Assembly: GCF_902833045.1 (NCBI RefSeq)
Contig: NZ_CADFDU010000005.1
Location: forward strand, 62,583 to 126,582
DNA from: Burkholderia sp. BCC0322
GTDB lineage: Bacteria; Pseudomonadota; Gammaproteobacteria; Burkholderiales; Burkholderiaceae
DNA length: 64,000 nt
Direction of reading: 5' to 3'
Below are positions 44,600 to 48,717 of the stretch, one piece after another. How positions within the stretch are numbered: the stretch's first letter is position 1; each line of letters begins with the position of its first letter. A program made the position numbers and the translations under genes. Below the pieces are notes generated by a model. It made no database searches. It was not told the origin of the DNA and saw only the letters and a program-made list of their open reading frames with translations.

Positions 44600-44628
44600 G
44601 AGCCGGGCGCCGCGCGCGGCCCGCGCTG

Positions 44629-44718
44629 CACGAGCCGCACGAGCCGCACGAGCCGCACGAGCCGCACGAGCCACACGAGCCACACGAGCCACACGAGCCA
44701 CACGAGCCATACGAGCCG
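44629..44718. repeat. Tandem nonamer repeat with two variant blocks
   Basis: Ten 9-base units: four CACGAGCCG, five CACGAGCCA and a last TACGAGCCG. As with the heptamer array 2 kb to the left, the variants lie in separate blocks. All frames are open because the unit length is a multiple of three (for example His-Glu-Pro repeats), but there is no gene start or ribosome site. Confidence 0.88.
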
Positions 44719-45070
44719 CATCTGCCCATGTCGGCGGCCGCGCGATGAATGCCGTTCGCGAGCGAGCACCGACCCGCACCTCGTCGCCCACCCAGGAGCC
44801 CAGCCATGCAACTGACTGGGGCGATTGCTGGATCGATGACGCCGTCTGCGGCGGGCGGCCGGTCCGCCGCTATCCGCTCTGCGCGATCTCGCTGAGCCGA
44901 TGTGTCGCGCGCTACGCCGCTACGATTCGCGCACCGGCGCGGGGCTCGGCGACGTGGCGCGCTGCGCGCGCGGCAATCGGCACGCGCTGGGCGGGCGGTT
45001 GCCTTTCGCGGGGGCATATGCAGCGCCCGCCGCCGGTCGCCTGGACGAGCGGCGGAGCGGTCTCGATCGG
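44719..45070. other. No assignable gene
   Basis: Several short frames overlap on both strands, none with a recognisable motif. A plus-strand frame around 44808-44930 has a cysteine-rich stretch (DWGDCWIDDAVCGGRPVRRY) that might be the remnant of a small protein, but the rest of the frame is arginine-rich as expected for a shadow. Confidence 0.3.
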
Positions 45071-45454
45071 TCAGATGTGGCGGGGAGGTTCGCCGTCGTG
45101 CTGTCGCGTGGCTTGAAGCAGCGTCCGGTAGTGGCGCAGCGCGCCGAACAGCGGACACGATGCGACGATCGCATCACGCCGATCCCGAGCGTGAAGAGTA
45201 TGAGGACTGCGAAGCGGTATCGCTGATCGAACAGGAACTGACGCAGGCTTCGGGATTGCGACGAACGCCGTGCACGCTGCTGCACGATCGACGCGTGCCG
45301 ACCGACGCGGCCTTGTGGCGCTGGCTCCGATTGCACAGCCCATTGCCGCTCCCGAGCTCGACCACAGACCCATGCTTTCAGTTGCTGCGCCAACCGCAGC
45401 GCGGGCAGCTATGCCAATTGCGAGCCACGTTCCCGTTTCCTTTCGCTCATACAT
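45071..45454 (-). CDS. Possible glycine-zipper membrane protein, perhaps decayed
   Basis: A 127-residue minus-strand frame. Its first 50 residues (KETGTWLAIGIAARAAVGAA, then TESMGLWSSSGAAMGCAIGA) have the small-residue spacing of glycine-zipper membrane helices and look like the start of a short Burkholderia membrane protein. The remaining 75 residues are less convincing, and another frame has a hydrophobic stretch (RYRFAVLILFTLGIGVMR), so a frameshift is possible. No clear ribosome site. This is a weak call. Confidence 0.28.
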   Translation of the reverse strand: MYERKETGTWLAIGIAARAAVGAATESMGLWSSSGAAMGCAIGASATRPRRSARVDRAAACTAFVAIPKPASVPVRSAIPLRSPHTLHARDRRDAIVASCPLFGALRHYRTLLQATRQHDGEPPRHI

Positions 45455-45914
45455 GGTTACGGTGCCACGTACATTGACATGAGATCAACAGGGCTGCGAA
45501 GCGTGGAGCGCTACAGTGAATCCGGCACCCGTCACGCGACCGCGCGTCCAGCTCCGTCGTGGGCGGCAAACCCCGACCGTCGATGAAACAAGCACGCCTG
45601 ATGCCGCGACGTTACATGACGCTTTCACCATGATCGCCAAGGCGGGCAACGAGATCGCGCACGACAGCGACGATGCGCTCGTCACCCGCATGCCGCCGGG
45701 GCGACAACGGCCCGATAATGCCTGTCCCGTTACGGTAAGCACGGCCTGTTTCATGCGGCCCGGGGTGGAACTGGCAGGGGGGTGATCAGGTAGCGGGCAT
45801 GAAGGTGTCATGATGCGCAGCGCCGACACCGCAGCCCGCGACGGCGCTGGATTCAGAATGTCAATCCAGCTCCAGGCTCTACGTACCGGTAATCGTCGAG
45901 CATTTTAAGGTTGA
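45455..45914. other. No assignable gene
   Basis: A 460-base stretch. The frames at 45485-45829 on either strand show no family resemblance or start signals. Nothing repetitive is seen. Confidence 0.3.
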
Positions 45915-46187
45915 TTAGCGAATGGCAAAGCGGGTCGCCGGCGAGCCATTTGCGCAATTATTGCCGTAGATAAAAAGATTCCGGTTTTCAGAATACGCCT
46001 GGTAAATAATTGAATAAACTTCCTTGGCGCTGAACGAGTAGACGCCGTCGTTAATGGTCACCAGCAGGTTGCCGGTTGGGTCGGTTTCGATCTTGTCGAT
46101 CTTGCCGGCCTTGCAAAGCGCCTGTGCGGACGCGCACGTGGAGGCGAGCATCAGTGCCGAAAACAGCACGGTTGCAATCTTCTTCAT
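45915..46187 (-). CDS. Small secreted protein in an AT-rich patch
   Basis: 90 residues with a clear signal peptide (KKIATVLFSALMLASTCASA). The mature peptide of about 70 residues has two cysteines (ALCKAGKIDKIETDPTGNLL; NNCANGSPATRF) and a beta-rich pattern. The ATG at 46187 has a perfect AAAGGA ribosome site. Codon use is much less GC-biased than in the neighbours, and the upstream 370 bases are AT-rich, so the gene was probably acquired. I do not recognise the family; two cysteines and short length fit a secreted effector, inhibitor or toxin-subunit-like protein. Confidence 0.75.
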   Translation of the reverse strand: MKKIATVLFSALMLASTCASAQALCKAGKIDKIETDPTGNLLVTINDGVYSFSAKEVYSIIYQAYSENRNLFIYGNNCANGSPATRFAIR

Positions 46188-46560
46188 GATTTTCCTTTTG
46201 TATTGAATGAATTGATGCGATATGACGACGTCGGTCAAGTCCGGAAAGACGTGTCGGTCTTTCCGGATTGCTGATTCACAAGTGTCTGGGAATCAACAGT
46301 GGCCTGACAAGGGGGAAACTTTGCGACCAAGCACGAATGAAATAAGTCGTGCTGCGTCTCCGCTTCTCGTTGATTTTTGATTCGCGGTGTTGCGACGCAC
46401 AACGAAGGTTATTTATTTGAATTTGATGGCGCCAATCGTATTAATTTATCGTTAATCGGATTCGATAATTTTGTTTGAATTTGATTTCATTGAATTCTGC
46501 GAACTGTTGTTTTTGTTTTTTGATTATTCCGATATTTAAATAATCGGCGCCGAATATTGA
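46188..46560. other. AT-rich non-coding island
   Basis: The stretch is strikingly AT-rich compared with its surroundings, with runs such as GAATTTGATTTCATTGAATT and TTGTTTTTGTTTTTTGATTA. It has no open frame of note. It holds the promoter for the minus-strand secreted-protein gene and looks like foreign DNA. It is a natural target for H-NS-type silencers, and an H-NS-like gene lies 2.5 kb away. Confidence 0.6.
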
Positions 46561-46826
46561 TTCGATGGTTGATGGTGCGGCGGGTGAAGCGCATGGGTGT
46601 TCATGGGGGGCTCAAGCGTTCGCGCGCGGGACTCGTCCGGTGCGCGCGCTGCGCGGCGCGCATCCTTCGAAGTCGGCCCCGGCCGGGTCGACCCGGCCCG
46701 GAAAGACGCTACACTGCGCGAGTTCCCGAACCTGCGGGGAGCGTCAGGACACCGGGCCCGCGGATGGCAAGCACGTGACGATGCAATTGCCCGCCCCCCC
46801 TGACGCATTCGAACAAGTAGCCCGGT

Positions 46827-46856
46827 TTGACACGCCGCGTTCGCGGCCATTAAAGT
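46827..46856 (+). promoter_or_regulatory. Candidate promoter of the reverse-transcriptase unit
   Basis: TTGACA (46827-46832) and TAAAGT (46851-46856) with an 18-base spacer. Transcription would begin near 46864, giving a leader of about 177 bases before the reverse-transcriptase ATG at 47041. Confidence 0.5.
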
Positions 46857-46863
46857 CGCATCG

Positions 46864-47040
46864 CGGGCCGGTGGGTCAAGCACACGCCCGGAACAGGCAA
46901 CGAATGTTCCAGGACTACGGGGCTACCCCGTGGATCAGATCGACACCCCGATGCGTCGCAAGGAGCGCCGTTGCGCGTTGCGCAACACGACTCCTCGCGG
47001 CACCAGTCACGTTGGCTCATCGTCCCGCCCATCGATTCCC
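46864..47040 (+). ncRNA. Structured leader of the reverse transcriptase, candidate msr-msd RNA
   Basis: Three perfect hairpins occur within 100 bases: GGAACA/TGTTCC (46890-46910), ACGGGG/CCCCGT with loop CTA (46917-46931), and GTTGCGC/GCGCAAC with loop GTT (46970-46986). The last is enclosed by AGGAG/CTCCT (46961-46965 with 46991-46995), extended by CGC/GCG. Such a hairpin series directly upstream of a retron-class reverse transcriptase is where the msr-msd template RNA is expected. The priming guanosine and the a1/a2 end repeats cannot be fixed by eye. Confidence 0.4.
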
Positions 47041-48390
47041 ATGTCCGGCTCCCTGTTCGACACCACCCGCACGATTGCCGAAGCAATGCTGGCCGGTGCG
47101 CCTGAACGCGCCGGCGTCCTGTCCCGGATGGCGGCCGTGCTCGGCAGCGCGCCACCGTGGACGCACGAAGTCGCGGATGCCGCGCTCGCCCGCTTCGGTG
47201 CGCGCTGGGACGACGTCGACATCGGTACGCTGGCGGCGGTCCTCGCCGATGCGCCGGCTTTCGTGCTCGCCTGGTACGGCAGCGATCGGCCGGCCGCGAT
47301 CCGTGTCGTGCGGCGCGCGCCGGTGCAGCGGCCGTTGCCGGCGCCGCTCGCCGGCTGCGACGTGCCGCAATGGGCGACGCCCGGCGATCTTGCCGGCTGG
47401 CTCGGCGTGAGCGCGCCAGCGCTCGACTGGCTGTCCGACCACTGGCGCGTCGACGCGCGCGGCAGCGCCACGCCGCTGCATCACTACACGTACGTGGCGC
47501 ACGACAAGCGCAGCGGCGGCAGCCGTCTCGTCGAAATCCCGAAAGGCCGGCTGCGCGAAGCGCAGCGCCGCATCCTGCACGGGCTGCTCGATCGCATCGC
47601 GCCGCACGGTGCGGTGCACGGTTTTCGCAAGGGGCACGGCATCGTGTCGTTCGCGGCGCCGCATGCGGATCGCGATGTCGTCGTCCGTTTCGATCTGGCG
47701 GATTTCTTCGTATCGATACGCGCCGCGCGCGTGCACGCGCTGTTCGTCACGCTCGGGTATCCGGCCGCAGTCGCGCGGACGCTCACCGGGCTGTGCACCA
47801 ATCGCGTGCCGTCCGCGCGGCTGCTCGCGCCCGACCTGCGCGACCGGTTCGACTGGATCGGCCGCCAGCGCTATCGCGAACGGCATCTGCCGCAAGGGGC
47901 GCCGACGTCCCCGGCCCTCGCGAACCTGAGCGCATTCCGGTTCGACATGCGGCTCGCCGCGCTCGCGCGATCGCTCGGTGCAACCTACACGCGCTATGCC
48001 GACGATCTCGCCTTTTCCGGCGGTGGCGCGCTGGCGCGCGACGTCGAGCGGCTGCAGGTCCGGGTCGCCGCGATCGCGCTCGAGGAGGGCTTTGCGCTGC
48101 AACTGCGCAAGACGCGCGTGATGCGGCGCGGCATGCGGCAACAACTGGCCGGGGTGGTCGTCAATCGTCATCCGAATCTGGCGCGCGACGAGTTCGATCT
48201 CCTGAAGGCCATCCTGACCAACTGCATCCGGAGCGGGCCGGCGTCGCAGAATCGCGATGCGCATCCGGATTTCCGCGCGCATCTCGCCGGGCGCGTCGCG
48301 CATGCGGCCGCGCTGAACGCGGCGCGCGGCGCGAAGCTGCGCGCGCTGTTCGACCGGATCGCGTGGGAAGCCCGCGACATCTGCAGGTAA
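47041..48390 (+). CDS. Retron-class reverse transcriptase
   Basis: 449 residues. The polymerase motifs are in order: Asp218 in VVRFDLADFFVSIRAARV, P284-QGAPTS-P291 before SPALANLSAFRFDMRLAALA, Y319-ADD-L in GATYTRYADDLAFSGG, and LQLRKTRVMRRGMRQQLAGV leading to VVVN. The sequence is closest in pattern to myxobacterial-type retron enzymes. Two hallmark positions differ: the NAxxH motif reads F204-AAPH-208, and VTG reads L369-AG-371. The first 130 residues form an extra helical domain (DLAGWLGVSAPALDWLSDHW at its end). No maturase or endonuclease domain, so not a group II intron. I use the ATG at 47041; the frame is open to 46930 but in unlikely codons. Confidence 0.85.
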   Translation: MSGSLFDTTRTIAEAMLAGAPERAGVLSRMAAVLGSAPPWTHEVADAALARFGARWDDVDIGTLAAVLADAPAFVLAWYGSDRPAAIRVVRRAPVQRPLPAPLAGCDVPQWATPGDLAGWLGVSAPALDWLSDHWRVDARGSATPLHHYTYVAHDKRSGGSRLVEIPKGRLREAQRRILHGLLDRIAPHGAVHGFRKGHGIVSFAAPHADRDVVVRFDLADFFVSIRAARVHALFVTLGYPAAVARTLTGLCTNRVPSARLLAPDLRDRFDWIGRQRYRERHLPQGAPTSPALANLSAFRFDMRLAALARSLGATYTRYADDLAFSGGGALARDVERLQVRVAAIALEEGFALQLRKTRVMRRGMRQQLAGVVVNRHPNLARDEFDLLKAILTNCIRSGPASQNRDAHPDFRAHLAGRVAHAAALNAARGAKLRALFDRIAWEARDICR

Positions 48391-48717
48391 ACGGCCCGGC
48401 CCGCATCGACGCCGGCCGTCGGATTCTGCAACACGGCGCCGAGCACTGCTATCATTCGCGCCATGCCGCGCCCGTGCCAAGTGCGGCGCTGACTTGCCGC
48501 AGCCGCTCGCCGTGCCTTCGTACATGGCGGGCTGCGCATTGCCGGCCCGGTCCTGTCCTGTCATTGATTGACGCGTGACGTCGTTTAATGCGTATTGCGC
48601 AAGCCGTGCCGGCTCAGGCAAACGATTCGTACATTTGACAGCCCCGATCGGCGGAACTTCGTGGTAGGTTCCGCCATCGGAGCTTTTCGAGAAAACATGC
48701 CCAAAGAGGATGAATAC
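48391..48717. other. Leader region of the H-NS-like gene
   Basis: No gene. A hairpin at 48646-48680 (GGCGGAAC with GTTCCGCC, extended by CCGAT/ATCGG with a bulge) is followed by AGCTTTTCGAG. It lies 40 bases before the start of the H-NS-like gene and could be a terminator for upstream transcripts or a 5' leader structure. TTGACA at 48635-48640 is a possible -35. Confidence 0.4.

What the first reader, a model, noticed from the sequence alone, without database searches (positions are those of the whole stretch)
46827..48390. Retron-class reverse transcriptase with a hairpin-rich leader and own promoter
A 449-residue reverse transcriptase with intact catalytic Asp and YADD, and without maturase parts, is preceded by TTGACA-N18-TAAAGT and a leader of about 177 bases holding three perfect hairpins, one of them inside a longer stem. 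That is the layout of a retron (template RNA then enzyme). No known retron effector gene follows; the neighbours are a secreted protein in AT-rich DNA and an H-NS-like protein. It may be an undescribed retron type in Burkholderia.
Basis: partly seen in the sequence, partly recalled or inferred. Interest (0 to 1): 0.85.

Follow-up and report, generated by a model that had tools for sequence, protein, structure and literature searches.

The report
Solo retron with no linked effector
A Burkholderia gene for an enzyme that copies RNA into DNA sits right behind a conserved structured RNA that very probably serves as its template, so this looks like a real retron, but unlike the well-studied ones it has no recognisable toxin or killer gene beside it.

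Summary
Window 47041-48390 encodes an intact 449-aa reverse transcriptase (RT). A covariance model from Burkholderia leaders alone finds the same RNA upstream of 8 of 10 RTs from other bacterial families. A second model finds 4 of 5 held-out relatives, one in Actinomycetota, and nothing in 16 loci of other RT groups. 32 of 46 base pairs change on both sides. 23 of 24 RT-positive and 0 of 13 RT-negative Burkholderia genomes carry the RNA. The RT matches PADLOC's untyped retron profiles RT_other/RT_outgroup best. No known effector is linked: neighbours differ between sites, and the H-NS-like gene persists where the RT is lost; small recurring neighbours exist in two pairs of relatives. Best reading: a deep-branching retron without linked effector, making an msDNA of about 70 nt; msDNA and function are untested. 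New variant of a known kind; the two most relevant papers could not be read.

The parts
46827..46856 (+). sigma-70-type promoter TTGACA-N18-TAAAGT of the retron RNA; -10 ends 6 nt before a1
   Evidence: TTGAC(A/G/T) in a similar register to a1 (-10-like box ending 5-8 nt before it) in 9 of 13 family loci examined (which picks the best-scoring pair of boxes)
46863..47028 (+). retron template RNA (msr-msd); predicted transcript starts at or next to 46863
   Evidence: consensus structure; covariance models R1/R2; pair counts
46863..46879 (+). a1 arm of the 16-bp closing stem
   Evidence: 14 of 16 pairs of this helix have changes on both sides among 13 sequences
46880..46880 (+). predicted branch-point G (2'-OH primer), first base after a1, context AAGC
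   Evidence: position directly after a1; AG follows a1 in the relatives read; branching itself not shown
46887..46913 (+). msr hairpin 1 (GGAACA/TGTTCC core)
   Evidence: 6 of 6 core pairs have changes on both sides
46915..46933 (+). msr hairpin 2, GGGG-nnn-CCCC core, the most conserved element of the family
   Evidence: the four GGGG/CCCC pairs are unchanged in 12 of 12 sequences of alignment A7; L063, not in A7, has a different core
46939..47011 (-). predicted RT-DNA (msDNA): synthesis would start opposite 47011 and run to about 46939 (about 73 nt; the 3' end is a guess within several nt)
   Evidence: inference from a1/a2 and hairpin positions
46958..46998 (+). msd two-part hairpin (outer GCAAGGAG/CTCCTCGC, inner GTTGCGC/GCGCAAC)
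   Evidence: three outer pairs interchange GC, AU and CG within Burkholderia, a few cells unpaired; 10 of 14 pairs change on both sides across families
47012..47028 (+). a2 arm of the closing stem
47041..48390 (+). retron reverse transcriptase, 449 aa
   Evidence: dN/dS 0.14-0.37 against 7 of the 22 Burkholderia loci
47041..47370 (+). N-terminal extension of the RT (about residues 1-110), predicted helical, no Pfam family, faster evolving than the RT domain

Best explanation
This is a functional retron of an untyped, deep-branching group, carried without a recognisable linked effector gene. Shown by sequence: a promoter placed so that the transcript would start at or near a1; an RNA that folds into a1/a2 stem, two msr hairpins and an msd hairpin; RT and RNA co-inherited, co-lost and under selection. 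Inferred from known retrons: the RT binds its RNA, primes on the 2'-OH of G46880, copies from 47011 to about 46939, host RNase H removes the template, leaving an RNA-linked hairpin DNA of about 70 nt bound to the RT. Inferred and least certain: the RT-msDNA complex works without a dedicated neighbouring toxin, acting either through the RT's own fast-evolving N-terminal helical domain or with an unlinked partner, most likely in phage defence (patchy presence and repeated loss resemble a defence gene).
For: Retron RT by profile, by sequence of solved relatives and by tree. Conserved, covarying upstream RNA, found by a Burkholderia-only model beside 8 of 10 distant RTs, by model R2 beside 4 of 5 held-out ones and in 0 of 16 loci of other RT groups, and largely recovered on an unguided alignment, 18 of 26 predicted pairs having at least one change on both sides. 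RNA-first search: 5 of 200 Burkholderiales genomes hit; four are RT loci already known (three of them in R2's training set), the fifth (G075) has a family RT directly downstream. RNA in 23 of 24 RT-positive and 0 of 13 RT-negative Burkholderia genomes; the exception G010 has lost the RT 5' part too. Purifying selection. No neighbour family recurs at more than two of the 15 loci (Pfam at 14 of them; record annotation for L065).
Against: No RNA, msDNA or phenotype data. Alignment A3 is fitted to R1's structure; on the unguided alignment hairpin 1 and part of the closing stem are not predicted and many cells are broken. RT motifs recalled as retron-specific are relaxed here (FAAPH for NAxxH, LAG for VTG). 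Two of ten distant RT genes carry an in-frame stop (G044, G1046), so decay is common. Some relatives may have a linked partner: in L079 and L080 (one genus) a CxxCxxCC-domain gene starts inside the RT stop codon (ATGA overlap), and L081 and L082 have a nucleotidyltransferase-type gene pair beside the RT.
Confidence: 0.82

Rival explanations
1. A tripartite retron in which the downstream H-NS-like gene is the effector or partner.
For: The H-NS-like gene follows the RT in the window, and the downstream DNA is shared (single linkage, over 800 aligned bases) by 21 of 22 Burkholderia loci compared.
Against: Five genomes without an intact RT keep the H-NS-like gene and the transporter gene side by side (G003, G018, G023, G028, G031); L071 (G018) still has an RT 3' remnant before it by BLAST and L072 (G003) one by eye. 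So it is not a toxin held in check by the RT. B. pyrrocinia LWK2 has the retron followed by a carboxypeptidase gene, and L021 by a potassium transporter.
Confidence: 0.03
2. The leader is only a cis-acting regulator (attenuator or protein-binding RNA) of the RT gene, not a reverse-transcription template.
For: It lies in the 5' untranslated region and is highly structured.
Against: Closing a1/a2 stem, G after a1 and msd-type hairpin before a2 are the retron plan; the element tracks a retron RT over two phyla; no Rfam family matched at E up to 1.
Confidence: 0.05
3. A non-retron RT (group II intron, DRT/Abi or other group).
For: Shares the general RT domain.
Against: Group II maturase 33 bits (cut-off 300), Drt2 36 (cut-off 390), Drt3a 13 (cut-off 200) against 474 and 452 for retron profiles; tree with one group II row.
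Confidence: 0.01
4. A decaying or selfish retron with no present function for the host.
For: Absence, remnants and truncations in Burkholderia; in-frame stops in G044 and G1046.
Against: The window copy is intact; RT-domain dN/dS 0.09-0.28 and compensatory RNA changes show selection on the machinery. Selection could still act on a selfish element, though single copies, mostly at one site in Burkholderia, argue against active spread.
Confidence: 0.1

Closest known systems
PADLOC-DB RT_other (PDLC02949) and RT_outgroup (PDLC03740), retron RTs of no assigned type
   Same: Best matches over most of the protein: RT_other 474 bits, RT_outgroup 452; relatives L048, L050, L051, L061 and L063 rank them in the same order.
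   Different: These are protein profiles only; as seen here they give no template RNA, effector or function for this group.
Type XIII retrons (PADLOC RT_XIII)
   Same: Next-best typed family, 300 bits.
   Different: Control L062 scores RT_XIII 554 over RT_other 311; the window RT the reverse. The genes beside the window RT are H-NS-like, a transporter and a small ORF. R2 has no match in L062 or the XIII-like loci L056-L058 and L069. That type XIII has a SWIM-type partner is recalled.
Myxobacterial retrons Mx162, Sa163, Mx65, Ne144
   Same: From passages of PMC6868368: RTs with an extended N-terminus of unknown function; vertical inheritance for many; branch G in CAGC (Mx162, Sa163) or GAGC (Mx65). 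That no effector is known for them is recalled.
   Different: Mx162 has a 162-nt msd; here about 70 nt is predicted. Sequence relation could not be tested: no myxobacterial RT was reachable.
Retrons Ec86, Ec67, Ec78 and other E. coli retrons
   Same: Solved relatives by sequence (Ec86 RT, E 2e-24); same plan of msr-msd RNA and RT.
   Different: Those have an effector gene or fused domain (recalled; Ec67/Eco2 in abstract of PMC12405507); here none is recognised, linked or fused C-terminally.

Membership tests
Retron (genetic element) | RT of the retron group | tested here: met
Retron (genetic element) | msr-msd RNA next to the RT, closed by a1/a2, with msr hairpins then an msd hairpin | tested here: met
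Retron (genetic element) | G in an AG(C) context directly after a1 | tested here: met
   AAGC in the window; AG after a1 in the relatives read (AAGC, AAGA, CAGG, TAGC, TAGT, GAGT, GAGC). Published contexts TAGC, CAGA, CAGC, GAGC, ACGC (PMC6868368 passage); AAGC itself is not among them
Retron (genetic element) | RT motifs NAxxH and VTG (recalled) | tested here: inconclusive
   FAAPH and LAG in the window; L048 has NAAPH and LTG
Retron (genetic element) | 2'-5' branched msDNA is made | not testable with these tools
   needs RNA/DNA work
Tripartite retron system (defined types) | linked effector gene or RT-fused effector domain | tested here: not met
   no C-terminal fusion; no PADLOC match in the two window neighbours scanned, no effector family among neighbours scanned in Pfam; H-NS-like gene excluded. 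The N-terminal domain is not excluded as an effector
Type XIII retron | RT_XIII as best profile | tested here: not met
PADLOC RT_other / RT_outgroup | best profile match, over most of the protein | tested here: met
Myxobacterial Mx162-type retrons | RT clusters with Mx162-type RTs | not testable with these tools
   no such sequence reachable; PDLC02949 at E<=1e-15 matched only Methanosarcina acetivorans among the 14 control genomes
DRT (Drt2, Drt3a) | score over NCBIfam cut-off | tested here: not met
   36.3 of 390; 13.1 of 200
Group II intron RT/maturase | TIGR04416 over cut-off | tested here: not met
   33.1 of 300

The most novel reading that the evidence does not exclude
An ancient retron class, found in Pseudomonadota and Actinomycetota, that works with RT and msDNA alone: the RT's N-terminal helical domain takes the place of the separate toxin, or the msDNA has a housekeeping role. 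In Burkholderia it is kept mainly by descent, so it would be a retron that does not follow the RT-RNA-effector rule.
Probability: 0.33. Interest if true: 0.8.

Novelty: new variant of a known kind. Interest (0 to 1): 0.6.

Why it matters
Retrons are now described as three-part, toxin-antitoxin-like defences. A selected and, in Burkholderia, mostly vertically kept retron with no recognisable linked effector asks what an RT-msDNA complex does by itself or with an unlinked partner, a question that to my knowledge is also open for the first retrons found, those of myxobacteria. The element is compact (about 1.6 kb), has a well-defined RNA and can be tested directly in E. coli; the two-phylum RNA model is also a start for an RNA family and for retron-based DNA production in GC-rich bacteria.

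Tried and rejected
H-NS-like gene as effector: rejected, since it is kept where the RT is lost and absent beside some RTs. Known regulatory RNA: no Rfam match at E up to 1 in 46200-48700. Phage-borne origin: a viral-contig scan gave 221 relatives, of which the best 80 were kept, none of these above 36% identity in its best segment; phage records matched 14 of 50,697, all under 60% identity and none covering 80% of the RT.

A conserved neighbour as effector: of the 15 loci, 14 had one or more neighbouring proteins scanned in Pfam (25 proteins, one of them at L063 outside the 15), not every neighbour; L065 was read from its record. Three neighbours recur, each in one pair of loci: DUF3141 at L087 and L088 (both Burkholderia, same site), a CxxCxxCC-domain gene overlapping the RT stop at L079 and L080 (same genus), and a nucleotidyltransferase at L081 and L082 (different families). 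The MFS genes at the window and L078 were taken as coincidence.

Literature: the retron classification paper (10.1093/nar/gkaa1149, PMC7736814) and the retron census (PMC11911249) are not held, so I cannot exclude that this RNA or a relative is described there. Paper searches. Of papers I saw listings and starts of abstracts, plus found passages of PMC6868368, PMC8867640, PMC8934634, PMC8565338 and PMC12262390; in PMC12548924 my terms, Burkholderia among them, did not occur. None of the listings or passages described a Burkholderia retron of this kind.

Limits of counts: dN/dS was computed for 7 of 22 loci. L019 (cut by a contig end) was left out of leader counts. Alignment A1 holds 32 of 39 leaders found by pattern, 7 identical copies dropped; L039 and L040, missed by the pattern, were read directly and scored by R1. 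In the RT/RNA co-occurrence G009 (RT fragments only) counts as RT-negative and G010 (5'-truncated RT) as RT-positive. R1 missed L053 and L061 at E<=0.01 and also gave four weak reverse-strand matches on Burkholderia leaders; R2 missed L063. Single-sequence folds show, by my reading, closing stem and hairpin 2 in 11 of 11, hairpin 1 not in L037 and the msd hairpin not in the same form in L050. In the tree the group is not shown to be monophyletic: L063 and L064 join the other retrons at 91/92, below the starred level, and the single group II branch is very long. Type II-A and several other retron types are not among its rows.

Full report
What is there. The window holds an intact 449-aa RT at 47041-48390 with RVT_1, D218 and YADD. 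A promoter, TTGACA (46827) - 18 nt - TAAAGT (46851), is followed by a 166-nt element ending 12 nt before the RT start codon. In addition the element is closed by a 16-bp stem, 46863-46879 with 47012-47028. The leader folds at -82.2 kcal/mol, lower than all 200 shuffles.

Conservation in Burkholderia. One genome scan gave 23 loci. In the 22 with upstream sequence, plus the window, conservation begins at the -35 box and runs to just before the RT start codon, while the sequence above the promoter is poorly conserved. With 9 further distinct copies, 32 leaders align at 92% mean identity; three outer msd pairs interchange GC, AU and CG with both sides changed.

Beyond Burkholderia. Protein searches found 7 non-Burkholderia relatives among 399 genomes of the order (45-51% identity, E<=1e-60) and, with one of these as query, 4 more in 369 genomes of the class (E<=1e-50), of which one (L062) is RT_XIII by profile and serves as a control. 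Model R1, built from Burkholderia leaders alone, hits upstream and on the same strand of 8 of the 10 others, E 8e-10 to 9e-4. Thirteen sequences aligned to R1 show 97.7% of cells paired against 78.0% in shuffles and 39-45% when the partner is slid; 32 of 46 pairs have changes on both sides. Model R2, built from those 13, finds L061, L053, L052 and the Dietzia locus L064 (Actinomycetota) but not Tsukamurella L063, and matches none of 16 loci of other RT groups at E up to 1; L063 nevertheless folds into a similar plan upstream of its RT. On an alignment made by sequence alone, RNAalifold gives part of the closing stem, hairpin 2 and the msd hairpin, 18 of 26 pairs having changes on both sides in at least one sequence, though many cells are broken and hairpin 1 is not predicted. 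On 200 genomes of the order R2 hit five: four are RT loci already known, three of which were in its training set, and the fifth, G075, has a family RT directly behind the hit. Promoter-like boxes keep a similar register to a1 in 9 of 13 family loci examined.

RNA and RT belong together. Of the 37 Burkholderia genomes seen by both searches, 24 have the RT and 23 of these have one forward RNA copy; 0 of the 13 others have one (G021 shows in addition a weak reverse-strand overlap). The exception, G010, has lost the RT 5' part and the RNA. Over the 61 Burkholderia genomes searched, 40 have the RNA.

What kind of RT. PADLOC RT_other 474 bits, RT_outgroup 452, RT_XIII 300; NCBIfam Drt2 and group II far below cut-off; the nearest solved structures by sequence are retron RTs, Ec86 first. 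In a 30-row tree the 16 rows of other RT groups form one clade (100/99) that excludes the window RT and its relatives. Eleven of the 16 were PADLOC-scanned and are I-C, III-A, XI or XIII by best profile; one more is annotated as Ec67 family; four were not typed. This fits the name 'outgroup', but the tree is small and the group is not shown to be monophyletic.

No recognised linked effector. The downstream DNA with the H-NS-like gene is shared by 21 of 22 loci, but five genomes without an intact RT keep the H-NS-like and transporter genes side by side; in L071 an RT 3' remnant precedes them by BLAST, in L072 by eye, so there the retron was lost. At other sites the neighbours are a carboxypeptidase, a potassium transporter, an aminotransferase, PriA, a CoA transferase, GTP cyclohydrolase II and PqiA, and others. 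Three neighbour families recur, each in two loci only: DUF3141 (L087, L088, one Burkholderia site), a CxxCxxCC-domain gene whose start overlaps the RT stop (L079, L080, one genus), and a nucleotidyltransferase with a small partner gene (L081, L082). The last two could be partners in those lineages; neither is near the window RT. In Tsukamurella an HAD-hydrolase gene follows the RT closely. A review states that some retrons lack proximal effectors (PMC8867640, passage), so this feature alone is not new.

The RT's N-terminal extension. About 110 residues precede the part shared with other retron RTs; no Pfam family, predicted as five helices at mostly good confidence, dN/dS 0.23-0.69 against 0.09-0.28 for the rest (7 of 22 loci). 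It is the best in-cis candidate for a sensing or effector role; this is inference.

How it would work. By analogy with known retrons (recalled, with branch contexts from PMC6868368): transcript from about 46863; RT binds the folded RNA; G46880 primes; DNA synthesis from 47011 leftwards to about 46939; RNase H trims; the product is a hairpin DNA of about 70 nt on an RNA stub. None of these steps has been observed.

Verdict. A real retron, structurally well supported, of an untyped deep group, with no recognised linked effector. The RT group was already profiled in PADLOC; no Rfam family matched the RNA, and I found no description of it in the papers I could search, but the two most relevant papers were not available.

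Noticed in passing
L079:5106-5399 (minus strand) and L080:6560-6841: In two genomes of one genus a 93-97-aa CxxCxxCC-domain gene (PF03692) starts inside the RT stop codon (ATGA overlap), so it may be translated together with the retron RT.
   Followed up: partly
L081:2609-3798 and L082:6864-7845: A Polbeta-type nucleotidyltransferase gene overlapping a small partner gene lies next to the retron RT in two relatives, in different orientation; looks like an MNT/HEPN-type toxin-antitoxin pair (the HEPN label is my guess; no Pfam hit for the small gene).
   Followed up: partly
L056, L057, L058, L069: XIII-like RTs (L058 by PADLOC; the others by tree) of about 600-700 aa with a C-terminal extension ending in hydrophobic stretches and a long hairpin upstream; a possible single-gene, membrane-linked retron variant.
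   Followed up: no
L071, L072, L043, L042: Stages of retron loss in Burkholderia: RT 3' remnant before the H-NS-like gene (L071; L072 by eye), an internal deletion (G009) and a 5'-truncated RT (G010).
   Followed up: partly
G1070:C42:16148-16318: A divergent Burkholderia copy of the retron RNA (96.6 bits against about 185-214 for the other full copies).
   Followed up: no
L044 (G016): A second, distant RT in a Burkholderia genome that also has this retron; it groups with III-A-like RTs in the tree.
   Followed up: no
window around 44640-44720: Tandem repeat seen in the ORF translations (HEPHEPHEP... in one frame) near the 3' end of the sugar-nucleotide reductase-like gene (that label is mine).
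   Followed up: no
window 44600-46820: AT-rich stretch with a small minus-strand ORF between the reductase-like gene and the retron; parts recur in L001, L003, L005 and L020 among the loci compared.
   Followed up: no
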